The notes beneath the pieces were generated by a model, which ran no database searches, was not told the origin of the DNA, and worked only from the letters and a program-made list of their open reading frames with translations. Below are positions 15,977-64,000 of a stretch of DNA of 64,000 nt, piece after piece. Numbering within the stretch: the stretch's first letter is position 1; each line of letters opens with the position of its first letter. The DNA lies in assembly GCA_037892935.1 (NCBI GenBank), contig JAYXKI010000001.1, forward strand, positions 930,001 to 994,000. The letters run 5' to 3'. This DNA comes from Phlebopus portentosus (Eukaryota > Basidiomycota > Agaricomycetes > Boletales > Boletinellaceae). The translations under genes were made by a program, and so were the position numbers.

Positions 15977-17177
15977 ATGTTTTCAGCAGCGAAGGCGGGT
16001 GTACGGTTGCTGAGAACGTGCTCGTCAACAAGCAGAGGAGTCCCTGGCACATTTCGGTGCTATGCGACGGAGGTCCAGCTACCATCCAACATCAATGATG
16101 CCCTCGCTCGGAATTCTGCACTTTTCAAAACATACAAGCCCGTTACTCCAGGTCTTCGACACCTTCGTCGGCCTCTTAACGATCATCTGTGGCGCGGACG
16201 TCCAATCAAAGCCTTGACTATTCCTCTAAGGAAAAAGGGAGGTCGCAATAACCAGGGCCGTATAACGATTCGTCACCGTGGCGGAGGTCACAAACGACGT
16301 CTTCGTACTGTCGACTTCATGCGTACGGACGGCGGGCCGCACGATGTTATTCGCATTGAATATGACCCTGGACGTACGGGACATATCGCTTTGATCCGTT
16401 CGCGAAGAGCAAAAGCCAACAATGGATTGCGCTACAGCTACATTATCGCACCTGAAAGCCTTAGAGCTGGAGATGTTGTACAAAGCTTTAGATGCGGTAT
16501 CCCTGCGGGAACTGTACCGGGATTTGACGGGAGATTGGACGCCTCCATGAATGTAACCGAGAACGAAGTGTCGACTAGGCAGAAATCGACGCAATCTCTT
16601 ACTATCGGTCTGCTTAGGGCAGCAACGGTCCGTACAGGAAACGTCCTTCCTCTCAAACTTATCCCACCGGGAACGCCGATTCATTGTATCTCTTTATTTC
16701 CCGAACGCCGAATGACCCTCGTACGCTCCGCTGGCACATATGCAATGGTTGTGACACATGAGGAGGATGGCAAATATTCACAAATAAAGCTACAGAGTGG
16801 CGAAGTACGAAGGGTGCTACAAGCATGCTGTGCGACAATCGGCAAGGTCAGCAACCCGTTACATAGATATCGTTCGCTCGGAAAGGCGGGGCGAAAGCGA
16901 TGGCTGGGGAGAAGACCTCATGTACGAGGTACAGCGATGAATAGGTTTGATACATGTCAATTTACATCCTGATTAAAATTGACTCCAATCGGTCTCCAGG
17001 TGTGATCATCCTCACGGAGGAGGTCGTGGCAAATCAAAGGGTAACAAGCATCCTCGTTCGATATGGGGTTGGCTCACGAAGGGCAAGCGCACGAGACGTC
17101 CTGGCCCGAAGGGTCCGAAGGGCAGCAACAAGATGGTGATTAAGGAACGCCCCAGAGGGAAGGAGAAGAGGCAGTAG
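15977..17177 (+). CDS. RML2: Mitochondrial large-subunit ribosomal protein uL2m
   Basis: Component of the mitochondrial ribosome close to the peptidyl-transferase centre. The N-terminus [20 protein letters not shown] is an Arg/Ser-rich mitochondrial targeting sequence. The uL2 core follows: [20 protein letters not shown] (RNA-binding domain) and [20 protein letters not shown]. The first exon ends in the codon for Arg of MNR at 16944. An intron (16945-16999) precedes exon 2, which begins with a Cys and gives [20 protein letters not shown], the conserved HPHGG loop, then a Lys/Arg-rich tail ending [11 protein letters not shown] at the stop (17175-17177). The intron sits right before the catalytically important loop. 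Total is about 382 residues, normal for fungal uL2m. Confidence 0.94.
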
Positions 17178-37205: not shown

Positions 37206-37578
37206 GATATATATGATGGTTCATTGGACCCTGGCTATTTGTAAGTTGCACGCATTGTCGTCGAAGCTTTCACAAACACCTGTAAATCGGTGTTATAAAT
37301 ACTTCATTCCGTCCTCCTGCTTGGGCCAGCGCAAGTGCATCAACAAACCGCGTCTATTGACCTGATCAGTTTCCCTCGGTGTCTCAGACTCCGAGACCAG
37401 AATACTCCAAATTTGGCTGCATGATGTCACATGATTCAGGGGCTTATGATCGACAGCTATATTGCGCTGCGTCACTCGTCGGGCAGGACTCTACTTTCCT
37501 CGTCAATCTACATAAGACGGCATCACTTCCAAGGCGCATCGCGGTCCCGGGAGTGTGTCGCTGACGATCGCTGCCATC

Positions 37579-40347
37579 ATGGGTATGTAGAATCCTTGCC
37601 AAACCTTTCGCTCACTGCTTACGATCTTTTTTAGCTTCCTCATCCACTTCCTTTGCATTTCCCTCCACAGAGTCTGCTGGCGGGTCCAGCCCGGCACCCA
37701 CTCCTGTTCCGTCACCTCAGCGTCGCCAGCACCTTCTTTCATTTCGAAGAATATCGCTTCCGGCTCCGTCCAATATACTGAATAGACACTCTTCGGCTAG
37801 CTTGGTGTCCTACGATTCTATTCCTCAGGAGAATACTGCATTGAACGGCCCCGAGGCCTCAAATGCTCCTCAAAGCTTTGGAGTGAAGCTTCCAAATAGG
37901 CCCTCTGCGGTTGATCCTGGCAAGAGGCCACATAGGAGAAGAGATAGCCTGAAGCCTATCGACGAGAGCAAAGCAGCTAAAAGACGGAAGATCATTACGG
38001 AATTTTACGAGACAGAACGCGCATATGTTGAGGGATTGGACCTGATTTATACAGTTAGTCCTCAATTTTCTCCCGTAGTCTCACTTCCAATCAATTTTAT
38101 CCAGCATTTTTTGACTCCCTTGATTGAGTCTCTTGATACCACTCCGCCTCTGCTCAGCAGAGAGGATCTAACAGTGGTCTTCTCGAACTTCATTGACATT
38201 TGGAATCTCCACTGCTCCTTTTTCACATCACTCACAGGCTTATTGTCTTCTCCATTGCCCCAGTCAGAGTCCGTGCCACCGCCTCTTTCGTCGGTCCTTA
38301 TATCTCACTTTCCATACCTCTCTCTTTATACACCCTTTGTGTCGAGTTTCTCTGAAGTCATCACTAAGCTTTCCGAGCTCCAGTCTTCTAATACTTCTTT
38401 TGATTCATTTATAATGGAGCGCGAAGCGGATGAACGATGTGGTAAACTCAAACTCCGGGATTGGCTTCTAACGATCGTACAACGTTGTCCTCGTTATCTT
38501 CTCCTTCTCAAGGATCTGATAAACTGTACGGACATTGAAGATCCAGAGCGTTCGAGCCTATTCGGCAGCCCATTCTCTGTTAACGAAAGGTAAGATTATT
38601 GAAACTTCTACCCACAGCAGTTGCTCAAATACCAAAATGAACAGTCACAACGTCTCTGGATACATCTCTACATACACATGCGCAAACACTGTCCCTCCTC
38701 GCGCTACAGCGGGCCACATATAACTTACCCATCCAACTCATCAGTCCGGGCCGGAGCTTTCTCAAGCGTGGGACTCTCATGCAGCTGGACAATTCTTCGG
38801 TTCCTAAGGAGCGTGAATTCCTCCTATTCTCAGACTGTCTTATCTGGCTCGCGAACGATAGAATGATCGAAGCAGAATGGTTAAAACGCAAAACGATTCC
38901 GGCATCGGTGGAGCCGGATTTGTTCGGGGCGTCTCTTCGGGTAAACGACCTGAATTTAAACGCAGCAGGAGCAAGAGCGAAAACGAAATACCAAACATGA
39001 CCAAATCTCATCAAAGAGAGGCCGGGACCAGCACGAAAAAGGCGAGTGCAGATCGGTCATCTAGCTACGAAGAAAGATGGTGGTTTAAGGGTAAAGCAGA
39101 ATTGGTTGACACAGAAGTTGTTCTCAGCACTGTCAGAGAAGCCGGTGATGAAAGGCGGATGGATATCTTAAACCCAGAGATGTCTTTCGCTCTATACGCC
39201 GATAATGAACAGGGCAGAGACGACTGGGTGTCTTCCATCCGATCTGCCAAAGCATCTCTTTTGGTTTCCTTGAATATTATGCATCCAAATTCTACGCTCT
39301 CGTCATCTTCTTCGACAAATCACATCCGTCGCTCCCTGCAAGCTTTGCCATACCTCCCAGAGGAAGATGAAACCCAGGCGCTGCCTAAGAGAGGAAAGGT
39401 AGACCACTTTGTGCCCGCTATTTGGGTTCCGGACGGGAGGACAGGTTCATGCATGAGATGCGGTAAAACCTTCGGATGGAGACGTCGGAGGCATCACTGT
39501 AGGCTATGTGGTCGTTGTGTCTGCGCCACATGTTCCGAAAGAGTCAGTTTTTCGCGTCCGCTTGACGCTCATAATGACTCAATATATCTTCATAGACATT
39601 CTTTATCGCCGATCCATCCTCAATTGACATCAGCAAGTCAGCACGAGCATGTAATTCTTGTTACGACGCGGTGTTCCCAGTCATCGAGTCCTCTGTGTCG
39701 GAAGGCGCTATTTCTTCAGCGCAGTCTGGTTCAACACTATCAAGTTTTCCGTCTTGGAGAACTCAGAAGCCGATGGCATGGAACTTCTCTAAGCCGTCGG
39801 AACTCATGGAGCTGGATGCACCCACATCTGGGTCTTCAAAGCGGGTGGACGTAATTCGGAGATCGAAAGCCAGACCACTAAGTCATCCGGTCATACCTGA
39901 AGTCTTCGGTATCTCGTTCGAGGAGTCCTTACGGAGGGTTTCGAGGCTGGACACAGGACAGCGAGAGGTAGCTGACGAAGTTGACCTCGATTCCCAGCAT
40001 CCGACAGATGTTGGGCAAGTTCTTGGAGATATTTCGAACTCGTCGGTATCCGTCGGGAATCTTCAGGACTCGTCTTGACTTCTTACTCTGAGGATATCTC
40101 ACCTCGAGCCAAGAAACGGTTTTCGATGCCTGCGATTGCCGTGCAGACGACCGCGGTGACAGCCCATCCAAAGATCAGTGGCGAAGGCCGTTCGAAGCGC
40201 TTCTCGCTCGTGCTTGGAAGCAAGCCGAAAGCGGCGGTACAGATGTCAGACCATACGCAAGCAAAAGTTAACGTAGATTTGAGACATGGTATTGCTGTTG
40301 CGAGATTACAGGAGCTGTTGGGAAGGACGAGTTCGGCGCAGACATGA
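37579..40347 (+). CDS. DH-PH-FYVE Rho guanine-nucleotide exchange factor (FGD-like), candidate frameshift
   Basis: Exon 1 is just ATGG (37579). After an intron (to about 37635) the frame gives a Ser/Pro-rich start (ASSSTSFAFPSTESAGG). The DH domain starts at KRRKIITEFYETERAYVEGL and includes LRDWLLTIVQRCPRYLLLLK. The PH domain follows (SFLKRGTLMQLDNSSVPKE; WWFKGKAELVDTEVVLS). The FYVE finger has WVPDGRTGSCMRCGKTF, WRRRRHHCRLCGRCVCATC and, after an intron, ARACNSCYDAVF. The C-terminus ends at 40347 after a small 47-nt intron at about 40046. FGD proteins activate Cdc42 on PI3P membranes. Near 38564-38565 an extra G appears to break the DH-PH linker frame. A probable intron at about 38880-38962 (GTTAAA...CGCAG) restores frame later. 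Confidence 0.85.
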
Positions 40348-40588: not shown

Positions 40589-43500
40589 ATGTCGTGGGAC
40601 TTCACTGCAGATGACTTACGAAAGGAGCTGAAGGAGCTGAAGGAGAAGCTTGCCGTGCAAGGTACGCTGGCAGGACTTGTGTCGATAACAGCCCAGAAAA
40701 GACGGGTTGACTAATGGTACCTATAGCTGTGAAGGTCGGCGAGCAAGAAACCAAGATCATAAGGAATGAAGAGGAGCTGCGCGTCTCAAGGGAAAACTAT
40801 GCCGATGCTTTGAATAAGGTAAGCTCATCGTGTATTCGATTGCGTCTAGCTTGCTCAAAGGTTTCCGCATTGAAGCTACGAAAAGAAGCAGATCGCAGCC
40901 TGGGGCTGGAAGAGGAGCTCAAGAGGCGCACAGATGATCTTCGTAACGAGAAGAATGCCCGCGAGAACGTTGAAGAAGCTCTGCGATCAGCAAAGGAGGA
41001 GCGAGAGCGAGAGGCCGCAACAGCAAAGGAAGCGCAGCACTACCTGAATCGAGCCGCTGTCGAATCAAATGACTATCGCGAACAACGCGAAAAGTTGGCC
41101 GCAGAAAAGGCAAAGTTGGAGTCCCAGGTTCGAGAACTGCAAGGCGAATTACAGAGGCACCAAGCCGCTCCGCCTCCACCATCCAGAACACCAGCTAGAC
41201 CTCGTGCGTCGTCACTTACGAACCTTAACAAGGTGGCGATGCTTGAGCGGGATATCGAACAGATCCGTGCATCTGCGTCTTCTTCGGAACTTGACCTAAC
41301 ATCAACCCGAGAAAAACTGTCCAGGGTACATACGGATCTCATCCGCACCGAAAATGAAAAGGCTGCATTAGAGAAGAAGCTGAAGGAGCATGAACAGAAC
41401 GTGAAGGACATCTTATCGGAGAAGGAGGATCTGCAGGCGGAGCTCGACTTCTACCGCGAACGGACCGGCTCGCAATCGCATGAGGACGAGCTCATCGCCC
41501 GACTAGAAGAGGAAGAAGCTAAAGTTGCGCTGTTGGAGAAGCAGCTCACTCAAGCCAGTACCTCGACGCACGCGAAGCGTGCTTTCGATCAGCTTGAAGC
41601 GCGACTCAGCAATGAAATTTCTCGGCGTGAGGACCTCGAGGCTCGTGAAGCGCAACTCGTGCATGACAGGGAGGAAGCATTCAATGAAGTAGATGACTTG
41701 AAGAGGACCGTGGAAGAACTCGAACGAGCTATCTCTCAAAAGGAATTACGTATCAGTGAATACGAAACACAATGCAGGTGTGTCTTCTAGTATCAATAAA
41801 CTCGATCTATGCTAATTCGCACCTTTAGAACGCTTCAGCAACTATTGGACGATGCGAAGCAAGCTGCTTCTCATTCATCGAATATGGGAGAAGAACAAAT
41901 CACTGACATGGTGAATCGCATCGCGCGTCTCCGTGCTGAGCGTGACGAACTTAAAGCTCATTTGGACTTCGTTCAGATGGAAGCGCATTTCAAGGTTGAA
42001 GCTCTCGAAGGCAAACTGGCGAATCAGACAGTAAATGATACGCAGCTCAAAGAATACCAGTCACGTCACGCTCAGCTGGACCGTCAGCTCAACGGCGAGA
42101 AGCGTAGTTTACGGATCACCCTGCAAGCCATGGTTGTGACAATCCAACATTTGTATGCCCAGAATGAGCATCTAGGAGTTTCGGCTCTTACACCCACTTC
42201 GTGCGTTTACTCGGCGGCCGATTCCCGAGAAAGCAATCAAACGGTCCTCGAGCAACAAGCTGCACTTACGCTGAAGGAGCAAGAGACAAACGATCTCAAG
42301 CTTCGCTTGAATGATGTTACGATTGCCCTTCGTAAGGAAACCGACCTCCGTTCGAATTTCGAGGAACAAGTCCAACAGCTGGAGGTCGATTTAGATATGG
42401 CCAAGCAAGAGCTTGCAGACGCGACAGAACACTGCGAGCGTCTCGAAGCTAGACATTCTTCCGACGCATCTCATGATGCTGTAGTACGCTCCCTCAAGAA
42501 CGAGATAGAGGAGTTAAGAAACAGGGTCATGCGCCGTACGGAACAAATTGGCCTGCAGCAGCACGATATCAAGAGGCTCGAGACAAATATGCGTCTGACC
42601 GACGAGCGTCTTGAGGAAGCACTTGGCGAGTTAGAGATGGCAGAGACGGCGAAAGTCGCTATGCTCGAGGATTGCTCCATTGCACGCGAAGAACGAGATG
42701 ATGCCAAAAAGACGCTGGTGCAGGCTGAGCTTGAAATCGAACGGCTTTCCACTCATCTTCACGAGGTGGAGAAGGAAGCGCGCGAACTTCACGCTACGTT
42801 AGCGTATATGCAAGAGAAAGCAGACATTGCCCAAAATGATAAGTTATCGACGATGATCGAGACTGTAGCGGAACGCGACAGCCGGATTAGAACTCTAGAA
42901 GATAAACTGGAAGTTTCGGAGACATCATTACGCCGTGCATATGAGCAGATTGAGGGTCTTAGAGGAGAACTCAGGCAGTTACAGGAGTCGCGCCACCAAT
43001 CACTCGAAGGCTTGCAGAAAGATTTGCAAAGTAGCAGGGATGCTGCATCAGAGGTGCTTGAACAACGCGCTCAAGAGTTGCAGAGCTTATCCGAGGAAGT
43101 AAAAGGTCTGAAGTCAGCCATTGGCGAAGCTCAAAGCACCCTGGATGCGAAAACCGAAGATTGCAGGCGCGCTTTCACCGAAGTCGAGGTACTCACCTCG
43201 AAACTAGCAGATGCAGAAGCAAAGATTACGGACCATGCGCTGCCAGCTGAACAGTCTCTAGACGAGGAGAGGACTGCACATCATGAAACAAAGCGCATAC
43301 TTCTCGCTAAAGAGGAGGAGCTCAAGGCATGTACTGGCCATCTCCAACGACTAACATCCGAGCTTCATACGGCAAAGGCAAGCCGAGAAGAATCACTTCG
43401 CTTGCTGCATTCTAAGGAAAGACAACTGGACGCAAGCTCCGCGGAGTTCAATCGACTTCTTGCGGAGCTAGAGGCGAGGGATGGTGACCGAGTCCAGCTC

Positions 43501-45402
43501 AATGAGATGCGCGAAAATATCTCGCATCTCGAGACAGAGAAGGCGGTCTTGGTCCATAGGCTCGCCGTGTTCGAAAATGAAACCGAGAAGGAACTTTCGG
43601 ATTCCGCCTCGCTCCGCTCGATCTTAGAGGAAGAGAGGAGGCTCCACGAAGAGCTGATCAAGAAACTCGAATCTGACCTCTCATCCTTGGAAGCAGAAAA
43701 AGAGAAGCAAAAGAATGCTTCCGAGTCGGTCGAAAGAGACCTCAAGGCCCGTTGCGAAGAGACTCTTTCGTTTCTGGAGACGACGAAGGCCGAACTAGAA
43801 GAGAAACGTGAACTTTACGATACACTCGCCAATGAACAGCAGAAAACATCGTCGAGTCGGGAGGATGAGGTAGTGGACCTCAAGCAGCAGGTTGCCGATC
43901 TAACGTCGGAGATAGATTCTCTTCAGAAATCGCTTCAAGATGAGATTGACAGCAGGACACGCGCAGCTGAGGCTCATAAAGAGGAACTGGAAGCTGCGCT
44001 TGACAAGCAGGAGTCCTTGTGCGCGGTTGAGTCCGAACTTCGCCGGACTGTAGAAGATTATCAGCAGCAGTTGGCGGAAGTACGCTCGAACCTTATGACG
44101 CTCCAAGACGATAACACGGCACTGCAGTCGGAATTAGACAACCTTTCCGGAGAATGTCATCGCGCAAACCTCAAAAGCCAGGCTCTTGAAGGGCAACTGA
44201 CTTCAAACGGACGGGGGTTGTCTGAGCTACGTAGCGATCTCTCACGCTTGCGTGAGGCGCTTTCACAATCAGAGAGATCCGGGAAGACAGCCGAGATGAA
44301 TCTCCTCCTCATTAGTCAACAAAACGAGCGTACAATCTCTTCTCTGCGAAATCAGCTCAAGGAGCACGAGAAAGACGCCGAGCGTATCCAAAAACTTCAG
44401 CAGATTGTCGGCGAGACAAGAGAACAGATCAGCGAGATGGAGAGTCTGCTTAAAGAGAAGTGTGCGGAGATTGAAGAGAATGACGACAAATTCATTCAGT
44501 GAGCCGTCTTCTGGAGTCATATCCTATCGTGACCAAACCGATTAACTGATGCATCAACCAGGCTGTTAAAAGAGAAAAAGAAACTAACAGGCAAAGTCGA
44601 ATCTTTGACGAAGAAGAACAATGCCCTGCAAAAGAAACTTTCGACTCCTTCCGTAGAACCTTCTTCCCCAGAGAATTCTTCTAGATGGCGAAGCGCGGCC
44701 GCGGCTCCTACCACGATTCCTTCTGGATCAACGGCTCCTACTGCTCTCCCTACGATGGAGATGTCCGCGTTTTCTTCATCCAAAGCAAAGGCGCCCGAGG
44801 CCGATCATGTCTGTTCCCCTCAACCCGAAACTCCTAGGAAGACGCGACGGATATCTGGATCGAAAAGACGCCGGGAGTCCACGCCTCCTAGAGACGAAAT
44901 TTCCGTCACGACATCGATAGGAAAGAAGCGGCCTCTGCCTGATGATTCGGATTCAGGATGTGCTCCAGTTGAGGCGCGATTCCCAGATGCATTCAAAGCA
45001 GGCGCAAGCAACTCGACGTCGTTCCCTACTTCGTCTTCGTTACCGCAGATGCCTTCAATGCCGCTTGCTGCAGAATTTACCTCCACACCTCGGGCGCGGA
45101 GAACAACGCCAAGATCAGGTTTCACGCCTGTGCGAGGACAATCAGCCGCTCTTCGACCTACGCTTAGCCAGCCATCGCCTATCAAAAAGTCTAGAGCCGC
45201 TCAAGCATTGCAAGCTACAACGGTCATCTCAGACATAACAAACAGTCCTCCGCGGTCTAAACGCGTCTTTACAACAGAACCTGGGTCCGTGGAGCCTCGG
45301 ATTGAGAGGCCGGCTAGGAAGGGCTGGTTAGGAAAGATCCGTAGTGGAGCAAACCCACTTTCGAGAACGCGGCAGCAGCCCAACAACGAAAGTCGGTCAT
45401 GA
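40589..45402 (+). CDS. Large coiled-coil protein (about 1,500 residues)
   Basis: The start at 40589 sits in a strong context (gccaccATGtc) and gives MSWDFTADDLRKELKELKEK. Short introns near 40670, 40825, 41778 and 44505 separate very long exons (about 40870-41776 and 41820-44502). Nearly all of the protein is heptad-rich coiled coil (for example KEEREREAATAKEAQHYLNR; EKDAERIQKLQQIVGETREQ). The last part (44605-45402) is basic and Ser/Thr/Pro-rich with nuclear-type signals (RRISGSKRRRESTPPR; SPIKKSRAA) and ends PLSRTRQQPNNESRS. This layout resembles spindle, kinetochore or nuclear-envelope scaffold proteins, but no diagnostic domain is present. Homology to myosin-like or Uso1-like proteins would be due to coiled coil only. 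Confidence 0.8.
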
Positions 45403-51931: not shown

Positions 51932-53203
51932 TTATTCTTCGTCAACGACTATCCAGCTCGTGGCACAGCCGGCCCATACGCCAACGACCTTTCCTCGTTG
52001 ATGATCACCGGATGGCCATAATCGAGCAGGCTCATGGACGTCGAGGGTGTGCCCTAAACCGAGGTTTCCGTGTTCATTCCAACCCCATCCAAATACATCC
52101 AAGCCGCCACCATTGACCTGCGCGCCAGTTTGTGAAGAGAGAAGAACATGTTCGCTTCCACAGATAATATTCAGAGAAGCAGCCTCCGATGCATCTGCTG
52201 GTAAACTAATTTCATTCATCTGGCCCGCAGTAACTCCGGCGCCAGAAGCCAATGCCAACTGCCCGTTTGAGTTGCTGCCAGTGGCCAAAATAATCCATTT
52301 ATTGGAATTGTCATGCCTCTTGAGAAGATATGTGCCGTTCCAAGTGGCGTTGACTGCGCATATATGTTTTGCTGCGTCAATATCGCAGAGTTGATCTTTT
52401 TTGTTGGATCCAAGAGAAAGCACAGTGCCCTCTGAGGTTAAGAATACCGCATGCTGGCTTCCAACAGCGAAGGCGCTAATGCATGAAGTGAATGGGATGA
52501 TATTTGGTGAACTATATGTCGGTTGTGGCTTCTTCGAAGCAGGACCCTGTCCTAGTTGACCCTGTCGCGCAGCACCCCATCCCACGACGAGCCCTGCTTC
52601 CCGCTTACTTGCATCCAGGAATACGAGCTTTACGATCACGTTGTGGGGCCCAGCCTTCAGCTGAGCGATCCGTACATTCGAGGCTGCCGTCGGAAGTAAG
52701 TGTCTAAATCCGACTGGGCGCCAGATATCGGTTTCCTTCTGTCCTCCTGGTAAGCCACCTATGCCAAGGTCGCCAAAGTCGTCACCTCCAACAGATAGAA
52801 CCAGATCGCTATCCGATCCGGAGAGGACTGCGTAAGATGTCTCCCAAGAAGCGGCGATGAATGTGATATCGCAGTCGACGAATTCAGTAAATCGAGCATC
52901 ATCGCTTCGAAGAAAAATGCGATGGAAGACGGAGGAGGCGCCAAACTCTCGACGATATTGTGCTCCTAATTGGCCCCTGTGACCGTTCCCACAGCCCCAT
53001 ATTTGAGTGACGCCCTCCTGTGAGCGCAGTAAGAGAAGAGTGTGATTTGCCCCAGTTGTGATTGACAAAAGTTTGCTTCCGGCGAGCTCTCCGTCACTCA
53101 AACTTCCGTCAAATATACACTGTTTAAATCTATGGCTGTCCGCCTCTGAGCCTTGAGCGAGTTGACCGTGGGCATTGGAGCCCGATGAATAGACAGCGCA
53201 CAT
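51932..53203 (-). CDS. RCC1-repeat beta-propeller protein
   Basis: An uninterrupted 423-residue frame from the Met at 53203 (MCAVYSSGSNAHGQLAQGSE). RCC1 repeats are visible throughout: WGCGNGHRGQLGAQYRREFG, SVGGDDFGDLGIGGLP, VVGWGAARQGQLGQGPASKK, SLGSNKKDQLCDI, TGSNSNGQLALASGAG and FGWGWNEHGNLGLGHTLD. Repeats of this spacing give a six- or seven-bladed propeller. The length is close to small RCC1-type proteins such as yeast Ats1 rather than to the Ran exchange factor, which has a nuclear N-terminus that is missing here. Its partner is unknown. The start lies 383 bp from the divergent RdRP start. Confidence 0.85.
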   Translation of the reverse strand: MCAVYSSGSNAHGQLAQGSEADSHRFKQCIFDGSLSDGELAGSKLLSITTGANHTLLLLRSQEGVTQIWGCGNGHRGQLGAQYRREFGASSVFHRIFLRSDDARFTEFVDCDITFIAASWETSYAVLSGSDSDLVLSVGGDDFGDLGIGGLPGGQKETDIWRPVGFRHLLPTAASNVRIAQLKAGPHNVIVKLVFLDASKREAGLVVGWGAARQGQLGQGPASKKPQPTYSSPNIIPFTSCISAFAVGSQHAVFLTSEGTVLSLGSNKKDQLCDIDAAKHICAVNATWNGTYLLKRHDNSNKWIILATGSNSNGQLALASGAGVTAGQMNEISLPADASEAASLNIICGSEHVLLSSQTGAQVNGGGLDVFGWGWNEHGNLGLGHTLDVHEPARLWPSGDHQRGKVVGVWAGCATSWIVVDEE

Positions 53204-53586
53204 GATTGTAAAAAGTGACGAAGAGCCACTTCGGACCGTGAACGAAACTTGAAGTATCCGATCGCCGATCAGCAGGAGTGATCGACGCGACGCGTCCTTC
53301 GGAGTTTAAATTGCTTCCGGAAGTTGAAAAGTGAACTGAACTTTGGTGTGACACCCCTTGCTTCCTCATCTTATCTCTCGCGCTTTGCCATTTCACGTAT
53401 ACCCCGCGCTTCGTTTTTTTTTCTTGTCGCGATCTTGATTATACCACCTTATCGATTTACCCGGACCTTCATAAATACGAGATACCTGTGGATTCTTGCA
53501 CGCGTCGGACTGGATATCACCTCAGCCAGTCTCCTCTATATCTGTACGTCTCCTCGGAATACCGTAGCAGTCCAGCTCCTTACAGG
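53204..53586. promoter_or_regulatory. Divergent promoter of RCC1 and RdRP copy 1
   Basis: 383 bp between divergent start codons. A box at about 53438-53478 (attatacc, cggacctt, cataaata) is repeated upstream of RdRP copy 2 at a matching distance of about 110 bp from the start. The TATA-like cataaata would suit a transcription start some 30-60 bp downstream. A short GT-AG interval at 53544-53585 ends one base before the start codon and may be a 5' UTR intron. Confidence 0.5.
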
Positions 53587-56500
53587 ATGGCTCTGGACTC
53601 AGAGAGTGGTGTACTCTCCGCAAGTGCAGTGCGCAGCGTTATTCCTTCAAGCGAGCACACGACCACCAGCTTGGCTAAGGGGAATTCCGGTGAGCATATT
53701 TCCTTGTGTCGGAGGAAGGGATTCTGATCACCGCACAGCCACAAGCCTGCTGGTTGAATTATTCCGTAAATCCCCTTCGAGCAGCCCCAAAAAAGCCGGT
53801 CGCGTAATGTTAGAGAAAGGTGTCAGCACGATAGAAACAAGACGTGAGTTGGCTAGAAGGGTCTCTTTTCTCGTTGATTGCAATTGCCACTATAGCGGAT
53901 CCGCAGCAAAGGCAACCAATACGCGAAACTCCTGCGGAGCAGCTTTGTGAAATTAAGCATGTCGAACTATCACATTCGACCACGGAATCTGGAAAGAAAA
54001 AGGATTTGCGCTCAAGTAACGCTTCCAGCCAGGTTCGTCACTCCCATGCATAGCGGGGGGCCATGGTTCTACCTCTTCGATAAGTTGTCTTATTATATAG
54101 GCGACAAGGAATTTGAAGAGACTCTTGCGATGATGGACGAGGAACAAGGTATGAATTTCCAGTTGTTTTTGTATTAAAAAATAGACTGTTGATAATATAC
54201 TTAGTTGAAGGCTGTAAGTTGAGCTCGACTGTTCGACTAGAGAGGACTAATGGAGAGTCTATACAGTAGTCTACTCAATTCCTGATGTTCCTCAGTCCAA
54301 TAGTTCTAGCTCGGCAAGCTCAGGATCTTCTCTCTCACGGACCACCTCAGACTCGACCGTCGCGACTTCAGTGGAGTCCTCGATACCTGGGAGAAGCGAC
54401 AAGCGCAGAAAGAGACACGAAGCTGATGAGTATCCTTGCAGACGCGCAAAGGCTCTGTCGGAACGACAAGATAGTGATCAAGTCGTAAAGAAACCGCGTA
54501 GCAAGGATCTGGACGTTCGATCTTGTGAACTCCCTCTAACCGTGGTGGCCTCGCATCAGAAGCATAGCAAACTGGACCGCCCGTTACCTCGAAACCTATG
54601 TGATCCGGGCCACAGCGAGCCCGTAACGTCCACCACGAAGCTCGCTGTGAATTCGACTGGTGATGTGCCCGGTTCAGCTCACGAGACGCTGACGAAAAAA
54701 CTCACGATACAAGCTGGCCAAGTCAGCTCAGGAATAGGAAAGGAGGTCGTCGACCTAGAAGCAGGTGACTCCAAGAGGACTCCAGAACCGCATCCCTTGG
54801 CAACTTCCAAAGTTCCAAGCAGTACGAAATGTTCCAGCCCGCTGAGTACGAAGATAACCTCGAAATGCATCGTCCAGTCCAAGACGATTGCTGAGAATAA
54901 GATCCCGTCAAATACTCCAATCATCATAGCCCATGATCAAAATAAGCAGTGGCTTTTGGATGACGAAGGGATAGCGAAAGGCGTGCAATTTGAAATCGCC
55001 CGTGGTATCACTCATGGCTGGTGGACTTGGGAAGATATCACAGATGGAGTTGTAAAGCAGCTTCGTGGCACAAACTTCGAGAAAGCTGGGAAAGTCGCAG
55101 AAATCATCGGAAAGGTAACTAAAGAGCGCCTGAGTCCTTCTGTACTTGCAACCCGACAGGCAATTTAGTACGTATCTTCTTTTTTTGCCTTAAAGCAATT
55201 CAATTGACTGTCCTTCCAGCGCCGAGCTCGATAGGGAACAAAAGGCGTTTGCAGAAGGCAAGGGTCGTGGACTGGGTCTAATGGGTCCATGGGAGGGAAA
55301 GGATAACTGGCATGGTGGATGCGTCCAGTTGACCGCCAAACTGACGTTTGATAAGGAAAACCGGGACGGCCAGTCACCTTTCGCAATTCGCCTCAACAGC
55401 TTCGGCATGGGCAAGTCAAATCGGGCTGCACGACGTTTTACGTCGCTCTCCGTTTTGCAGCTTAAGTTCGAAAAGGAGGCATTGTACGACGAGAAGAAGT
55501 ATGAGCTAGTCATCGAACTCCTCAGTAGGAACGTCGTCATTTGCGGACGATTATACTATGCCTTTTGTACAAAGGAAGGGAAGATATTCTTCGTAGAGAC
55601 AAATGTGGATTACCAACGCCAGAAGAGAAGGATCATTGGGGATCATTTCAGACTGTCATATCGAAGAATCATCAATGCCATCAACCCGCTTGACCTCAAC
55701 AAGGAACAGGTTAGGAGTTCCTACTTATGACGTTTAGCATATCTGACGTATTCCTAGGCTATGAACAAATGGCTTGCTCGATGGTATGGCGCCTTTGATG
55801 TCGATAAGCTGCGCGCATCTAAGTTTCGTTTTTGTAGGCAGTTAATCTTATCAACGTCAAGACCTGTTGTCGAGTTCGAACCGGAGAATATCTATCTGGA
55901 TTTGGATGACGTCTGTACGTACTTCAAGCACCCGCGTTGTTTGACTCTACTAAGCTGCGAGAAGATGGAGATGATACCGATAAAGATAGCATTATGACGG
56001 ATGGATGCGGCTGGATCAATTTATCCGCTCTTAAGCAAAGTAAGAGACTCGGTTAGGTCTTGCGTATGTGTGTTGGATAACTTATTCTCATGTTCAAAGT
56101 TGCGGCCGTCACAAACTCGACCGTCCCGGGCGTTGTACAAGGACGGATTGCTGGTGCGAAGGGCCTTTGGGTGCTGCATCCCTCGCCGAAGCACAGAAGC
56201 GACACGGAGCCTCCGAAGATAGTGAGTTCTTGTCTAACAATCGAAGTTCTTCGAGGTCTGAGCCACTCCAAAGTGGATTCGACGGTCACAGCTTAAAATT
56301 AAACTACCTCGGAAAGAGGATTGGGATCGTGCACTACGAATCTTTGATCTTGTACGGCTACCTCGCCTCACAGTTCCAAGCGGGCTGAATATGCAAACAA
56401 TAATGAACATGTCACATAATGGCGTACAAGACAAAGTCTTTGTAAATCTAATGGACGAAGGATTGAAGAAGGAGATCGAATCATTGACGAAATGGGATGG

Positions 56501-58580
56501 AGACAATGCGTGCCTTCTGCTGGCGAGAGCAGTAGAAGAAGCTGGTGGTGTGATGTCATCACGTCGTAGTCGTGCTGCTGGTGGAGAGGCGCGACTGTAT
56601 AATTTCATTCGGGACGAGGCTGATGATGATGATGATTCTGGGGCAAACGTCGGACTAGTTGAAAGAGATCCGATCAGCGGGTGTCCTGCCACTCTTTATG
56701 AGTCCGCCCATGACATGTTAATTGCCGGCTTTAACCCGCTGCAAAACTTGGTCCTGCGGGAAAAACTGAAATACATTCTGAAAGAGGCGATTAAGTCGTA
56801 TATGGAAAAGTTTCATATACCAGTCATTTCGTCTGCAGAGGCATTCATCGCACCAGGTATGCACCACCTCTGAACAGGAACTTGCTTCTCACAAATGAAT
56901 AGACCCTTATGGAGTCCTGGAAGAAGGGGAAATCTACTTTCGGTGCTCAACTCCTGTCAGTGACCCGATGATTTCGATTGATCCCCATACCTTTTTGGGT
57001 CCTGTCCTTGTAAGTGGCTTTCTTGTCATTGTTACGTCGCTGATATGACAGTAAAGGTGAGCCGAAATCCGACACGAGTCCCGTCTGACATCCGGAAGGT
57101 AGACTACTAATTTCCTCATAAATGTCGTCGGTTTGACGGTTTCCAGGTTACAGCGGTTAGCCGGGACCAACTGCTATCCTACACCGATGTCATCATCTTC
57201 TCGACAAAAGGCAAAAGATCATTAGCAAGTGAGTGTTTTGAATCGCAATGGTTTCTTCTCTAAACTCATGTCCATTCAGGTTACCTGGGCGGTGGAGGTA
57301 TGCTGAATTGCTGAAGAAAATGAAAACTGACATTCACGAACCTGACTCACAGACTACGACGGAGGTATGTTCACGAGTTGCTAGGTATGACAGCAGTGTA
57401 CCTAATCAAGTGATGCAGACACCGTCACGATCATAGCTGATCCGGCTATCGTTAATGGTTTTCATAACTCTGAGTACATTCCGGAACCCCAGGAGGTTCG
57501 CGAGGCATTTGAAACAGACGTTGAAAAGGTGTCTGAATTCCTGGCGAAACTGGAAAAAATGGGGCGCGAAGAAAGGTATGCTCGAATCACCCACAAAGTC
57601 TTGCATGGCCTATCAGACGGGAAAGTTGGACTTTATTCACATATGCACGATAACGCGTAAGCCAGATGCTCGAATGTGCTAGAGCCTCGTGAATAACCTA
57701 TTGCTCATTTAGGATTTATGAGCTTGGATACAATAATCGAGAGACCATTCGCCTGGCATACATGTGGGTGATATGTTCAAGCGCTGTGCACGACTAACTC
57801 TTGTTTAGGTTCACAACTTGCTTGGACTCCGTCAAGTCAGGTCTACGAATCAAAGACTTGGTCTTCAAGGAAGACTCCAAAAGGTGGAACGCTCCGAGGC
57901 CAGAATGCATGCAGACAAATGATGAAATTGCCCGAAACCAATACAGGACGGGAGTCGGCAGGCGGTTGAACAGACCAGGGAACCTCGGACCGTTCGTCCT
58001 GGCGACGTTGAAGAAATGCGCTAAGGAACTTGGTGACAAAGCTCTATGTGAATTTGAAATGCTGAGTGACAAGGGAGAATCCTCGGGGCTCGACGAGGAC
58101 CTCGCGAAGCCGTATTATGAGATGAAGGAAATCGTGAACGGCTTGCACTGCGACGACAGACTACTTGCCGATCTGGAAGAAGTCAAGAAATTTGTCGAAT
58201 CATTGTGCGAGCAATATATCGCAGAAGTCGTGCCCCACTTCGGAGAGAAGAGCCCCCGTAAAAATGGCACAAACGATTCAGCATCGAGAACCCGGACGAT
58301 AACCCAAATTAACCGCGAGTATGCCAGGAGATTTAAAGAGGGCCTTTCTGATCGCCGTCTGTCCGTCCCTCCACGAGTATTGAGAGAGGTCAAGGCATCG
58401 TATGCACATGTTTACGGCTCATCGAAATCGAAAATGGGGAAAGTGTTCGGATTCGTAGTTGCCCATGACACTTTGTGCGCGTTGAAAAGCCTGGAGAAGG
58501 GAGGAGGCTCAGTGAGTAGAGAGTGTCGGGACTATACACTGGTCTCGTCTAACCTCGTGAAGTTGGTTCGTGATGAATGA
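53587..58580 (+). CDS. RNA-dependent RNA polymerase, copy 1 (QDE-1/RDR type)
   Basis: Eukaryotic RdRPs turn aberrant single-stranded RNA into double-stranded RNA for Dicer in RNA silencing. The start at 53587 gives MALDSESGVLSASAVRSVIP; exon 1 ends at 53689. A variable Ser/Lys-rich part (54371-54900) precedes the conserved KQWLLDDEGIAKGVQFEIAR, then GLMGPWEGKDNWHGGCVQLT, SIMTDGCGWIN, VVQGRIAGAKGLWVLHP, RALRIFDLVRLPRL, FHIPVISSAEAFIAP and VSRNPTRVPSDIRKV. The catalytic stretch SYLGGG-DYDGD-TVTII is spread over an 18-nt exon (57280-57297), a 12-nt exon (57353-57364) and the next exon (57419). All three catalytic Asp are present. The C-terminal helical part ends at the stop at 58578. About 20 introns are inferred; no internal break was seen. 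Confidence 0.93.
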
Positions 58581-59343
58581 TTTTGAATTTGTACGCATTT
58601 CTGTTACGTTTTGTGTACTATTCCTTTCCCTGAGGCTTTGGCGTCTTTGCAAAAATATTGACGGCTTTGCCCATGAAGACAAATTTGTGCCAGTGACATC
58701 GAGCTCGAATTGATAGTATTTGTGTACAACACATTGATTCTTCACATTCCGACTCGTTATTGAGTTCACCTTTTTTCAAATAGGAGTATCAGATCGCGAT
58801 TTGTTCCCGCTTTGATCGGTGAACTGTGCTTTCGAAGAGGGTCGAGTCGACCAGATTAGGAGAATATTCGCTTGAGGTTGTGGCTACCTTCCTTAGGTGT
58901 GAGCAAGCTGACCACATGAACGTTGAAGTGGACGAATAAATGGAGAAGAAAACATGATCGACCACTGGGAAGGTCGATTATCATTATCGATATCATGATC
59001 AATCATCAAGAAGGATCAGCAAGACACGTGCTTTTTCGGAGTCTGTATTGCTTCCGTGCCCATTCAAGTACTACTTTTGGTGCGTCGAATCAGCGTCAGA
59101 TCTTTCTTCCTCGTCTCGCATATTTCAGCTCTTCTATTTCACGTGTACAACATTCACTTCTTCACCTTTACCCTTGAGATCTCGATCATTCGGAATTATA
59201 CCCTCTTGTCAACTCACCTGGACCTTTATAAGCCTCTTGCTCTCTTGTCCGTGGCGTCCTGGATATCCCGGGTCCTTACTGTTTCTCCTCTCCTCTTGAT
59301 TTGTACGTGTTTGAAACGCTGTCTTCTGTCATGACCCTATAGG
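58581..59343. promoter_or_regulatory. Intergenic region and promoter of RdRP copy 2
   Basis: About 760 bp between the stop of copy 1 and the start of copy 2. The box at 59195-59232 (attatacc, tggacctt, tataa) matches the one upstream of copy 1. A GT-AG interval (59303-59342) again ends one base before ATG. An AT-rich symmetric stretch (cgattatcattatcgat) lies at about 58975. No gene is seen. Confidence 0.5.
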
Positions 59344-62300
59344 ATGTCATCTCGATCAGAGAGCCATGTATTTCAAGCTGGCGCTGAACACAGCGTCATT
59401 CCGTTGCGCGCAAATTCCGGTGGGATTGAATACTAAGTGCAAGGGAAAGGTTCTGATGATCCCACAGGTACGAGTCTGCTTATTAAGCTATTTCGAGACT
59501 CCGCGACAACAACGCGCAGTAAACCCGATCGCATCATGTTGGAGAAGGGCGTTGACCCGATGAACAGGGCAGGTGAGCTGGCTGTATTATTTCTTCCATT
59601 ATTGTAGGTTGACGATAATTAGAAACAGAAAGAGGACATCTGGGCTCTTCAACGTCTTCTACGCCGTCTTTTGATATGATGCAGGATGGATCTGCTGCGC
59701 CGTGCATGTCATCCGTTATAACAAGGGCCATCCCTTTGACCATTGCTTCCAGCAAGGTATGGCCTATTGTATGTTCAAGAATGTGTCCTGACTTTTGGGA
59801 CAGTCTTCCCACTATACCGGCACCGAGGAACTCGAGGTTCGTATGCTGCAGGTAACGGAAGAAGGTATGATATCCTGATCACTGTCGTTCGTTTAATCGA
59901 CTAACGAGAATAACAACAGCTGAAGAATGTGAGCTAAAGTCAGCAATGGATTTCAATTCAGTACTTACTTGGAAATTGGCCAGGGGACGATCCATTTGTT
60001 GATATTTGCGAGTCAGATTCGGGAAGCTCGACGTTACCTCTTTCACACAGTGGTGTAGATCAAGCTCCGCGCCTGCCCGCTGAAGCATCCACGTCCGGAG
60101 AGAACATGAATCGCTTCACACCAACTCCGAACGAATCGTCTTTCCGTAATGCAGAATGCGAAGTAGAACGAACCGGCAGTATCCCACGGTGTTGCGATAG
60201 CAAGGATCCGGACCTTCGATCTCCTAAGTCTGTATCCGCTGCTAATCGGAACCGGATCAAGCAGGACCGGCCCATACGTCGAAGTATACTTAATCCGGGT
60301 CATAGCACACCGATGACCTCGACCGTAAGGATCGCCGCGAGCGCCACAGGGACAGACGGATCACGGCAGATCGACAATGCCATGCAATCAGGAGAAGTCA
60401 ACGTTGGGGATGGAAACACCGAGGTACAACCAGACTGTACAGTAGAAGCTCGGATCTCGGAAAACTCTGGAGTCCATATAATCCCGGAAGTATCTAAGAC
60501 AGGTATGGCTGAGCAAGTTACAGTAGCTACTGGCGATGACTCCCTGGCGAGTACCTTTGCGGAGCAAGAATCTCCGATTATCATAGCTCACAATGAGCGA
60601 AAGCAACAACTTATAGATGGTAAAGGTATAGCAAAAGGAGTGCAGTTCGAGATCGCCCGAGGAATCACTCATGGTTGGTGGACATGGGACGACATCACGG
60701 ATGAAGTCGTTGACAGCCTCCGCGGAACAAATTTTGAGAAAGCCGGGAAAGTAGCGCAAACAATTGGCAAAAGGCCTAAAAGGGGATTGAGCGCACCGGC
60801 AGGCCCGATCGCACAGGCAATATAGTATGTTTTCTGCTAAAACGTCAACAGAGCATCACTGAACGGGACTTTTTAGTGCTGAACTTGACAGAGAGCAAGA
60901 GGCGTTTGTGGAACACGAGGATCGTGGACTGGGTCTCAAGGGTCCATGGAAAGGAAAGGATAACTGGTATGGCGGACGTGTCCAGTTGACCGCCAAGCTT
61001 GAGTTCAATAAAATGAACAAGACCGGCCAACCTGCGTTCACAATTCGCCTCAATGGTTTCCACACCGGCAAATCAAACCGAGCTGCAAGATTCTTCACGT
61101 CGCTATCATTCTTCAGCTTAAATTTGAGAAAGAAGCTCTCTTCAATATTGAGAACCACAAATTGGTGACAGAGCTTCTCGGCAGGCACGTCGTCATTTGT
61201 GGTCGCTTGTACTGTGCCTTCTGTACGAAAGAAGGAAAGATATTCTTCGTCGAAACGAACGAGGATTATCAGCGCAAAGCAAGAGAGAGCGATGGTGATC
61301 AGTATAGAATGTCGTATAGAAAGCTCGTCAAGACTATCAACCCTCTGGAACTTAACAAGGAACAGGTATGCTCCGTCTATCCAACGTGGCCGATTCTGAC
61401 TCATCTATTAGTCCATGAATAAATGGCTTGCACGTTGGTGAGCATCTCCCTCCGTGATTTCATGATTTCCATAGAGCTTCCTTTTCCAGGCAACTGATTT
61501 TGTCAACATCACGACCAGTGATCGAGTTCGAGCCACAGAATATTTTCTTGGGCTTAGACGACGTTTGTACGTTTCGACCCTTTGATTCTTAAAAGTCGAA
61601 CTAATCTTCCCAAAGATGGCGTTGAATCAGACAAGGAGTCCATAATGACAGATGGTTGTGGATGGATGAACTATACTGCTCTTCAACAAAGTACCGTGAT
61701 TCTAGCCAATTCTAAATGCCGTCACTCATACAGCTCATTTTCCTACTGGAAGTCGCCACTATAACGAATTCAAGCTTTCCAGTTGTCGTGCAGGGACGCA
61801 TCGGCGGATCGAAAGGCCTTTGGCTTTTACATCCCGCGGAAGAACACAGAAGTCCAACGGAACCACCGAAGATAGTGCGTCCAACTCTGGAAACTGTGTG
61901 GATTCAAGCCTGAGGCATTTCTTCGTAGTGGGTTCGACGATCACAGCTTAAAATAATCTTGCCACCGAAAGAGAAATGGCATCGTTCGCTTCGAATTTTC
62001 GATCTTGTTCGCCTACCTCGACTTTCAGTACCGAGTGGGCTGAACGAGCAGACCATTCTGAATATGTCTGATAATGGCATAGAAGACAGTGGTTTTGCTG
62101 ACCTTATGGAAGCCGGATTGAAGGCAGAAATCGAGCCTCTGACTAAGTGGGAAGGGAAAAACGCATGCATTCTGTTGGCGAAAGCTGTGGAAGAGGCAGG
62201 TAGGATAATGGCTGCACGTCGCCTTCGTGGCGCCGGGGGTGAAGCTCGTTTGTATAGCTATGTCCGAGATGAGGATGAAGAAGTTGACAACGATGCCGAT

Positions 62301-64000
62301 AACGATTCTGATCTCCTGGTCGAAAGGGACTCTGTCAGTGGCCTTCCTGTCTCGCTGTACGAGCACGCCCGCGACCTGCTGCTCTCTGGCTTTGCTCCCT
62401 CCCAAAGCCCGGTGCTGAGGGAGAAACTGAGGTACATTGTGAAGCAATCGATTAAGAATCGACTCGAGAAATTCCATATACCGATCGCATCTTCCGCCGA
62501 AGCATTCATAGTGCCGGGTAAGTGGCACACTAATTGATATCTGCTGGATGTTCAAGTTGTATAGATCCGTATGGAGTTTTGGAAGACGGAGAGATTTACT
62601 TCAACTGTACTACACCTGTCCTTGATACAAGCACATGCATTGATCCTCACACTTTCACGGGCCCGGTGCTGGTAAGTCACTCATATATCAACTTCTTAAA
62701 GACTAAATTTTCAATGTAAAGGTGAGCCGCAACCCGACGATGGTGCCGTCTGATGTACGAAAGGTGAGGTTTGAGATTTTAACGAATTAGTCTTGCGCTT
62801 CAAGGATTATAGGTGACGGCAGTCAGCCATGACCGACTTATTAAATATAAAGATGTAATCATTTTCTCGACGAAAGGCGGCCGATCGTTAGCGAGTAAGC
62901 ATTAACTTGAATCGGTTTAGAACATATGCTCATGCATGACTAGGTTACCTGGGTGGTGGAGGTATGCTTATTATCTCGGGAAATTGACGGCTACTAATGA
63001 ACATTTTCTCGTCTATAGATTACGACGGAGGTAAGACCAAGATCTGTTGAATATGATCCCAAGCCACTTAGCATCCGTAATTTAGATACTGCCACGATCA
63101 TTGCTGAACCGAGTATTGTCAGCGCATTCCACAACTCAGAACTCGTGCTTGAACCAATAACCGTCCGCGAGGCTTTTGAAGAGGAAATAGAGAAGGTGTC
63201 CGAGTTCATAGAAGGAATCAGATCGATCAATCGTCAGAAGTTCTCTAGGGAGATTTCAAACAGGGTTCTGCGCGGATTATCTGATGGCAAGTTCGGACTG
63301 TACTCCAGGTTTCACGACAACGCGTTAGTTGGTTTATACACTGTAGCTTTACAAATTCGCGGACGACTTATCATCTGACTTAGAGCTTATGAACTCGGGT
63401 ATAACGACCCGGAGACGATTCGGCTCGCATACATGTAAGTGCTTGAGGCAATGTCCGGTACTTTACTTATAGCTGTCCAGGTTTACAACGTGTTTGGATG
63501 CCGTGAAATCCGGTCTGCGAATCAAAGGCTCAATTTATACGGAAGATGCTAAAAGGTGGAACGTGCCAAGGCCCGAGTGCATGCAAAAAGAGGACGAACG
63601 CGATCGTATCCGTAACAGGGGAGAAATCTGTCGTCGACTGATCAGACGTCGAAATTTGAAGCCGTTTGTCCTCGACACGCTGAAAATTCACAGCAAAGAC
63701 CTTGCAGACAAAGCCCTATCCGCCTTTGAAGCACTTAGTAACAAAAGAAGACCCTTTTATGGCCTGCGGGAGAAACCTGACGAGGACCTCATACGGCCTT
63801 ATTTCGAGATGAAGAAATTTGTAACTCACCTTCAGGATAAATACGATATCACCAGTCCGCTTGAAGATCTGCAGAAAATTGAAACCTTCGTTCGATCGCT
63901 ATGTGAAGAATACATTCTTGCAGTGGTATCCCTTTACGGAAGTGAGGACAGGGGAGATAAATCGTCCTCGAAGTCGGAACCGATGGCCAAAATCAATCAC
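59344..64000 (+). CDS. RNA-dependent RNA polymerase, copy 2, 3' end beyond window
   Basis: Tandem paralogue of copy 1 in the same orientation. The start at 59344 gives MSSRSESHVFQAGAEHSVIP, matching SSEHTTTS-type sequence of copy 1. After a variable region (60106-60580) come IAKGVQFEIARGITHGWWTW, GLKGPWKGKDNWYGGRVQLT, SIMTDGCGWMNYTALQQ, VVQGRIGGSKGLWLLHP, SLRIFDLVRLPRLSVPSG and FHIPIASSAEAFIVPG. The catalytic stretch is again split: 18-nt exon 62944-62961, 12-nt exon 63019-63030 and an exon from 63086, giving YLGGG-DYDGD-TATII. The last visible exon (from about 63480) encodes the helical C-terminal part and runs into the right edge, so the last 100 or so residues are missing. No stop or frameshift was seen in the joins I checked. 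Confidence 0.92.

What the first reader, a model, noticed from the sequence alone, without database searches (positions are those of the whole stretch)
57229..57420. Catalytic DYDGD of RdRP copy 1 carried by a 12-nt microexon
By eye the sequence reads exon ending TTAGCA-A, intron 57229-57279, 18-nt exon GTTACCTGGGCGGTGGAG, intron 57298-57352, 12-nt exon ACTACGACGGAG, intron 57365-57418, then ACACCGTCACG. Only this splicing yields S-Y-L-G-G-G-D-Y-D-G-D-T. The metal-binding Asp codons are thus split across three exons, and skipping the 12-nt exon would stay in frame but delete the first part of the active site, a possible switch for making an inactive enzyme.
Basis: partly seen in the sequence, partly recalled or inferred. 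Interest (0 to 1): 0.75.

Follow-up and report, generated by a model that had tools for sequence, protein, structure and literature searches.

The report
Catalytic microexon in mushroom RNAi polymerase
In this medicinal mushroom, four key amino acids of an RNA-silencing enzyme's active site are written on their own 12-letter exon; the same tiny exon appears to be shared by mushrooms of several orders and is missing from about one in five of the related database proteins examined, most likely because annotation software overlooked it.

Summary
The window lies in a Sanghuangporus genome. Copy 1 (53587-58580) is an intact QDE-1-type cellular RdRP gene whose catalytic D-Y-D-G-D is assembled from an 18-nt and a 12-nt exon between three short phase-1 introns. 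Of 5593 splicings enumerated across the site, one gives SYLGGGDYDGDT, and all 10 that give D.DGD use the 12-nt exon. Tandem copy 2 keeps both microexons (one silent change each) although its introns have diverged to about 0.5 identity.

The feature reaches beyond this genome. Of 179 homologous proteins with sequence at the motif, 36 lack exactly the four residues of the 12-nt exon, in seven Agaricomycete orders; Fomitiporia lacks exactly the 18-nt exon. The loss is scattered at random on the tree, occurs between 99%-identical proteins, and has parallels only in other small exons, so it is best read as annotation error. Four Boletales contigs that look like spliced RNA include the motif.

The suggested switch is not supported, though not excluded: skipping stays in frame, but no skipped RNA was found. 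No RNA-seq of this species could be mapped. Conserved coding microexons are known; this one, at the catalytic centre of an RNAi enzyme, was not found described in eight searches.

The parts
53587..58580 (+). RdRP copy 1, start codon to stop codon (S. vaninii ortholog P0001, 1337 aa, matches from its first Met)
   Evidence: tblastn of P0001; exon model from 54266 on without internal stop; Pfam PF05183 323.5 bits
57147..57228 (+). exon I (82 nt), ends in phase 1 at TTAGCA-A
57229..57279 (+). intron 1, 51 nt, GTGAGT..CAG; retention gives an in-frame stop inside the intron
57280..57297 (+). 18-nt microexon (J18), encodes (S)YLGGG(D)
   Evidence: absent exactly from the Fomitiporia protein P0004
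57298..57352 (+). intron 2, 55 nt, GTATGC..CAG; retention gives a stop inside the intron
57353..57364 (+). 12-nt microexon (J12) ACTACGACGGAG, encodes (D)YDG(D): catalytic DxDG
   Evidence: missing exactly from 36 homologous proteins
57365..57418 (+). intron 3, 54 nt, GTATGT..CAG; retention gives a stop inside the intron
57419..57656 (+). exon K, completes the third catalytic Asp codon (G|AC)
57057..57098 (+). exon H (42 nt, VSRNPTRVPSDIRK); missing exactly from 8 of 120 homologs
57713..57763 (+). exon L (51 nt); missing exactly from 3 of 120 homologs
59344..64000 (+). RdRP copy 2 (tandem paralog; runs off the window end)
   Evidence: tblastn of P0003
62944..62961 (+). 18-nt microexon of copy 2, 17 of 18 nt identical to copy 1 (silent change)
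63019..63030 (+). 12-nt microexon of copy 2, 11 of 12 nt identical to copy 1 (silent change)

Best explanation
Copy 1 and its tandem copy 2 are functional QDE-1-type cellular (RNA-silencing) RNA-dependent RNA polymerase genes of a Sanghuangporus species. The catalytic D-x-D-G-D loop is carried mainly by a 12-nt coding microexon between two short phase-1 introns; in Sanghuangporus and Fomitiporia a third intron cuts out an 18-nt exon just upstream. The exons are normally (constitutively) included: each flanking intron of about 50 nt is recognised on its own (intron definition), and all exons must be joined to give an active enzyme. The 12-nt exon is an old feature of this RdRP clade across Agaricomycetes, kept because the introns have not been lost and the encoded residues cannot change. 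Gene finders often skip it, so many database proteins falsely appear to lack the active site. Shown: anatomy, conservation in copy 2, exact exon-shaped gaps in other species' predicted proteins, their random distribution. Inferred: constitutive inclusion in this species, common ancestry of the intron pair, annotation error as the cause of the gaps, catalytic activity.
For: Exact splice sites and a unique productive splicing, 1 of 5593. Open model in which retention of any of the 13 introns gives a premature stop and an RdRP domain at 323.5 bits; the motif aligns to DYDGD in QDE-1 crystal chains. Copy 2 keeps both microexons with one silent change each, while the 10 compared introns are only 0.48-0.57 identical and 8 other exons 0.61-0.74. 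The S. vaninii and S. weigelae models contain SYLGGGDYDGDT. 36 of 179 homologs with sequence at the motif lack exactly the four residues, in 7 orders; P0004 Fomitiporia has exactly the predicted J18-skip sequence RSLANYDGDTV. Near-identical proteins differ by this gap: P0043/P0037, 1066 of 1076 aligned residues identical; P0087/P0071 from one species, 905 of 966. Label scatter is random. P0129, an ORF on a 42.7-kb contig closest to Rhizopogon and Suillus, runs ..SLASYLGGGG and ends there, as expected where an intron GT follows GGG-G. Boletales-like 'lgn' proteins of 1016-1100 aa on 3.3-4.1 kb contigs, which look like spliced RNA, include the motif: P0022, P0030, P0150, P0155.
Against: No RNA read of this species was examined; inclusion in it is inferred. 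For other species only proteins were available, so their introns are inferred from exon-shaped gaps. The dependence on exon size is not smooth: the 18-nt exon is missing in 1 of 120 but the 42-nt exon in 8 of 120, which I explain by intron 1 being confined to few species. The acceptor of exon K is weak in both copies (rank 19 and 21 of 24), which could lower splicing efficiency. 131 of 179 homologs have the complete motif, and for those the presence of the microexon cannot be told. P0127 and P0128, ORFs on 7.1- and 19.3-kb environmental contigs, read straight through DYDGD, so some fungi lack these introns.
Confidence: 0.9

Rival explanations
1. Regulated cassette: the 12-nt exon is skipped under some conditions to make an in-frame, catalytically dead RdRP (an off-switch or dominant-negative for RNA silencing), and the exon is conserved for that reason.
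For: All three skip combinations stay in frame and open; both microexons are symmetric phase 1-1; 36 predicted proteins equal the skipped product, and whether RNA-seq entered any of those models is unknown; a regulated microexon exists in Trichoderma Xlr2 (PMC11121469).
Against: Skip forms are random on the tree; other small exons (H, L) are dropped too; none of the 36 skip forms (cluster representatives) carries an 'lgn' source, and 7 of 7 'lgn' proteins on 3.3-6.6 kb contigs include the motif; donors are ordinary; exon skipping is comparatively low in fungi (PMC6142364, passages).
Confidence: 0.07
2. The four-residue gaps are real gene deletions: many mushroom RdRPs are catalytically dead paralogs.
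For: 36 predicted proteins lack DxDG.
Against: The gap is scattered at random on the tree, 32 changes for 36 tips, and separates proteins 98.9% identical; its borders equal the Sanghuangporus exon; the Trichoderma authors report the same kind of annotation miss for their microexon.
Confidence: 0.02
3. Copy 1 is a decayed gene and the apparent microexons are a chance reconstruction of DYDGD from degraded sequence.
For: The motif is in pieces and a six-frame search sees only fragments with stops.
Against: Open model with GT..AG at all 13 introns, same exons in copy 2, 95% identical ortholog with the full motif.
Confidence: 0.01

Closest known systems
Conserved coding microexons of plants (1-15 nt) with pervasive misannotation, Yu et al. 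2022, PMC8831610 (abstract start and passages seen)
   Same: Tiny coding exon at a fixed place and phase across distant species; mostly missed by genome annotation; one plant cluster is also 12 nt long (phase 0).
   Different: Different kingdom and genes; here the exon carries the metal-binding catalytic motif of an RNA-silencing polymerase; no RNA-seq support yet.
Xlr2 20-nt microexon switch in Trichoderma virens, PMC11121469 (abstract, outline and section 2.4 seen)
   Same: Fungal microexon that encodes key residues of a functional domain, conserved among relatives, missed by the JGI gene model.
   Different: Xlr2 inclusion depends on glucose and was shown with RNA-seq; here no regulation is shown, the exon is shorter and the apparent spread is seven orders rather than one genus.
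Microexons (2-10 aa) in Phanerochaete chrysosporium P450 genes, PMC1184071 (passages seen)
   Same: Agaricomycete genes with 45-55 bp introns and exons down to 6 bp.
   Different: Spread over P450 families; in the passages seen not tied to one conserved catalytic motif.
Neurospora QDE-1 cellular RdRP (PDB 2j7n, 7y7p, 5fsw; organism recalled)
   Same: Same enzyme family and same DYDGD motif in aligned position.
   Different: The exon structure of the qde-1 gene was not examined here.

Membership tests
Cellular (RNA-silencing) RdRP, Pfam PF05183 | Domain score above the curated cut-off | tested here: met
   323.5 bits against cut-off 23.8, residues 354-998
Cellular (RNA-silencing) RdRP, Pfam PF05183 | DxDGD catalytic motif in place | tested here: met
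   Only with the 12-nt exon; aligned with DYDGD of QDE-1 chains
Cellular (RNA-silencing) RdRP, Pfam PF05183 | Polymerase activity / role in RNA silencing | not testable with these tools
   Needs enzyme assay or gene removal
Coding microexon (15 nt or less, as used in PMC8831610) | Internal exon of 15 nt or less between canonical introns, frame kept | tested here: met
   J12 12 nt, GT..AG both sides, phase 1-1. J18 at 18 nt meets only the wider definitions (30 or 51 nt, quoted)
Coding microexon (15 nt or less, as used in PMC8831610) | Conserved position and phase in related genes | tested here: met
   At DNA level in copy 2; in other species by exon-shaped gaps in 36 of 179 homologs
Coding microexon (15 nt or less, as used in PMC8831610) | Present in mature RNA | tested here: inconclusive
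   Apparent RNA contigs of Boletales include the motif; no reads of Sanghuangporus
Regulated microexon switch (Xlr2-like) | Condition-dependent inclusion or loss in RNA | not testable with these tools
   No RNA-seq available
Regulated microexon switch (Xlr2-like) | Skipping alters a functional domain | tested here: met
   J12 skip keeps the frame and removes DYDG

The most novel reading that the evidence does not exclude
An RNA-silencing switch kept across mushroom-forming fungi: controlled skipping of one 12-nt exon converts the RdRP into an in-frame, near full-length but catalytically dead protein that can still bind its partners, so that splicing efficiency tunes RNA silencing; some skip-type gene models would then reflect real transcripts. 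Since RNA silencing in some yeasts targets poorly spliced transcripts (recalled, Cryptococcus), the RdRP transcript could even regulate itself.
Probability: 0.07. Interest if true: 0.85.

Novelty: new member of a known kind. Interest (0 to 1): 0.55.

Why it matters
The catalytic centre of an RNA-silencing enzyme appears to hang on a four-codon exon kept over several orders of Agaricomycetes. Practically, about a fifth (36 of 179) of the homologous database proteins examined lack the active site for what is most likely an annotation reason, which could mislead surveys of which fungi have working RNA silencing. Biologically, it offers a conserved test of how fungal spliceosomes join a 12-nt exon between introns of about 50 nt, and whether such exons are ever used as switches.

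Tried and rejected
A search of viral contigs for the DNA of relatives gave no relative; no fungal genome other than the window's own was available to me, so introns of other species were inferred from proteins; genome contigs (bacteria and archaea) was not scanned. The 218-aa fragment search gave only 9 proteins, one of which (P0129) proved useful. Splice-site models from 24 introns are too small to predict skipping. Eight literature searches (open-licence PubMed Central only) listed no paper that by title or start of abstract describes an RdRP active-site microexon in fungi; only 12 of 43 papers were listed, and PMC8022950 (Cryptococcus annotation), which holds the words microexon and RNA-dependent RNA polymerase once each, was not opened. 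Subscription papers were not searchable. Passages of PMC3990503 and PMC10219462 gave nothing on this gene; the latter has 0 occurrences of 'RNA polymerase' in its main text. Pseudogene and real-deletion readings were considered and rejected (see rivals). Scripts ended in an error after partial output: after the other loci were read at the motif; exon M was not scored, and the 12-nt exon scored 0 there because MAFFT places the gap differently (GG----GD), so its count is taken. In one search the copy 1 model was still wrong at exon D (two bases short, frame lost in the printed translation); one search corrects it.

Full report
WHAT IS THERE. The window (47.9% GC) lies in a 38.4-Mb genome in 23 contigs. 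The best protein matches are Sanghuangporus vaninii (95% identity) and S. weigelae (92%), so the organism is a Sanghuangporus (Hymenochaetales). Copy 1 runs from the start codon at 53587 (tblastn of the S. vaninii ortholog) to the stop at 58580. From 54266 onward I built 14 exons: A 54266(partial)-55167, B 55220-55709, C 55758-55914, D 55965-56039, E 56100-56221, F 56274-56856, G 56903-57009, H 57057-57098, I 57147-57228, J18 57280-57297, J12 57353-57364, K 57419-57656, L 57713-57763, M 57809-58580. All 13 introns are GT..AG, 45-60 nt long, and each would bring a premature stop if retained, in the intron or, after a frame shift, behind it. The protein scores 323.5 bits against Pfam RdRP (cut-off 23.8), and the motif aligns with DYDGD in solved QDE-1 chains.

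THE OBSERVATION. I enumerated all splicings with up to three introns (GT or GC..AG, 35-130 nt) between D-V-I-I upstream and V-T-I-I-A-D-P downstream: 5593 splicings, 334 open and in frame, 10 with D.DGD, and one that gives RSLASYLGGGDYDGDTVT. All 10 use the exon 57353-57364. In copy 2 the numbers are 1705, 262 and 9, again all 9 with its 12-nt exon.

CONSERVATION IN THE TANDEM COPY. Copy 2 has the same intron positions and phases from exon D on. Its 18-nt exon differs from copy 1 by one base of 18 and its 12-nt exon by one of 12, both silent. The 10 introns compared have 0.48-0.57 aligned identity, whereas exons D-I, K and L have 0.61-0.74 (exon M is cut by the window end and is left out; exon D of copy 1 was two bases short in that call). 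So the microexons are under coding constraint while their introns have drifted. Three further RdRP loci in the genome do not share the arrangement by my reading of the sequence: at C1:2914k the motif DLDGD lies in one exon; at C2:2347k one intron sits after DLDG, two bases away from the copy 1 position; at C3:2682k one intron sits just before DLDGD, also two bases off.

OTHER SPECIES. Three protein searches gave 186 distinct proteins, each the representative of a 90% cluster (one search found 202 but listed 120, so 82 were not seen; searches scored only the 7987 candidates sharing most words). Around the motif, classed 131 as having D.DGD, 36 as lacking exactly four residues (GGGDYDGDT becomes GGGDT), 2 as possible 18-nt skips, 13 as other and 4 as uncovered. 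By reading the rows I split these further: P0004 (Fomitiporia mediterranea) reads RSLANYDGDTV; 11 'others' deviate at the motif in other ways (garbled, as P0053, P0144, P0171, or substituted, as P0178); 7 are set aside (P0126, P0129, P0181, P0184 uncovered; P0117, P0185 not aligned there; P0177 gapped over the whole stretch). That leaves 179, of which 36 lack exactly the four residues. This loss is what skipping the Sanghuangporus 12-nt exon would give, and the Fomitiporia sequence is what skipping the 18-nt exon would give, including the new Asn codon A|AC. The 36 fall in Hymenochaetales 2, Boletales 14, Polyporales 9, Agaricales 7, Gloeophyllales 2, Amylocorticiales 1 and Atheliales 1; one species per order was looked up, the other assignments are recalled.

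WHY THESE ARE MOST LIKELY ANNOTATION LOSSES. (a) On a FastTree of 161 proteins (copy 1 and 160 of the 186; the 'other' and uncovered rows, P0177 and rows under 750 aa were left out; P0004 counted as full; the motif columns were not removed) with 36 skip forms, the label needs 32 changes; 200 shuffles need 32.9 +/- 1.7, and 64 of 200 need 32 or fewer. The state does not follow descent. Sixteen sister pairs of tips differ in it. (b) P0043 Trametes sanguinea and P0037 T. coccinea agree at 1066 of 1076 aligned residues; apart from two gaps of 108 and 82 residues in the N-terminal part, the one gap is these four residues. P0087 and P0071, both Mycena galericulata, agree at 905 of 966 and differ by the same gap, among several others. 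(c) Among the 120 homologs, the loss of a whole exon (90% or more of its residues gapped, flanks present) is seen for the 18-nt exon in 1, for the 42-nt exon H in 8, for the 51-nt exon L in 3, and for none of the exons B, C, D, E, F, G, I, K of 75-583 nt (exon M not scored); for the 12-nt exon I take 26 of 120. The low count of the 18-nt exon breaks a smooth size trend; I explain it by intron 1 being confined to few species, since in P0129 and in the many gene models ending SLASYLGGG the stretch is continuous. (d) Eleven proteins come from source 'lgn' alone. Nine span the motif and have it (P0022, P0030, P0063, P0066, P0089, P0113, P0119, P0150, P0155). Seven of these lie on contigs of 3.3-6.6 kb with one long ORF and look like spliced RNA; P0113 and P0119 (7.9- and 16.5-kb contigs) may be genomic. 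The four nearest to Boletales (P0022, P0030, P0150, P0155; 1016-1100 aa on 3288-4137-nt contigs) matter most, since gene models of the same order carry the gap. None of the 36 skip forms has an 'lgn' source. That 'lgn' means assembled raw reads is my inference. In contrast P0129, from a 42.7-kb contig and closest to Rhizopogon and Suillus, looks genomic: it reads through the intron before exon H, reaches SLASYLGGG, adds one Gly (as G + intron GT would) and ends. This supports intron 2 in Boletales at the DNA level and shows that intron 1 is absent there.

HOW IT MOST LIKELY WORKS. Fungal introns of about 50 nt are taken to be recognised across the intron (established knowledge), so a 12-nt exon needs no exon definition. 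Both microexons end in GAG|GT, a good donor context; donors of introns 1-3 rank 5-12 of 24 in the two copies, acceptors 5-21, with the acceptor of exon K weak in both (19 and 21; a model from only 24 introns). I conclude that inclusion is constitutive (inferred). The skipped product would keep one of three Asp and should be inactive (inferred from the family). Fungi show comparatively little exon skipping (PMC6142364, passages seen).

AGAINST THE SWITCH, AND WHAT REMAINS OPEN. Symmetric phases and in-frame skipping permit a switch, and Xlr2 of Trichoderma shows that fungi can regulate a microexon (PMC11121469; abstract and section 2.4 seen). But the skip-like proteins are explained without regulation, and no RNA evidence of skipping was found in what I could see. 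Whether RNA-seq entered any of the skip-type gene models is unknown.

COMPARISON WITH THE KNOWN. Conserved coding microexons missed by annotation are documented in plants (PMC8831610; abstract start and passages), and microexons of 2-10 codons in Phanerochaete P450 genes (PMC1184071; passages). The present case is a member of that kind. What stands out is the place, the metal-binding loop of an RNA-silencing polymerase, and the apparent spread over seven orders. Eight searches of open-licence papers listed no report of it by title or start of abstract.

Noticed in passing
window 53587-64000: Two RdRP genes lie head to tail; the S. vaninii orthologs bear consecutive gene numbers (ACEPAH_1017 and ACEPAH_1016), and S. 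weigelae has a further 247-aa piece (P0121) with the motif.
   Followed up: partly
L009, L010, L011 (G000 C1:2914k, C2:2347k, C3:2682k): Three more RdRP loci with DLDGD instead of DYDGD and different intron positions around the motif.
   Followed up: partly
window 57057-57098: The 42-nt exon H is also missing exactly from 8 of 120 homologous proteins.
   Followed up: yes
P0108 (Ceratobasidium sp. AG-Ba): Named 'feruloyl esterase B' in its source but has the RdRP domain.
   Followed up: no
P0186 (Lentinula raphanica), P0029 (Hericium alpestre): RdRP domain in one predicted protein with PF13086 and PF13087 (helicase domains, name recalled) or with RRM domains; fusion or gene-model error.
   Followed up: no
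P0125, P0127, P0128: Environmental ORFs that read through LLGGGDYDGDTV; P0127 and P0128 look genomic (7.1- and 19.3-kb contigs), so the introns are not universal.
   Followed up: partly
window 6196-7392 (-), 10353-11630 (-), 15926-16969 (+), 28834-29763 (-), 37565-38590 (+), 51935-53305 (-): Ordinary neighbours by Pfam: Nup96, a lysine methyltransferase, ribosomal L2, a Cid1-type poly(A) polymerase, RhoGEF, RCC1 repeats; the 900-aa ORF 41800-44499 (+) has no Pfam match.
   Followed up: no
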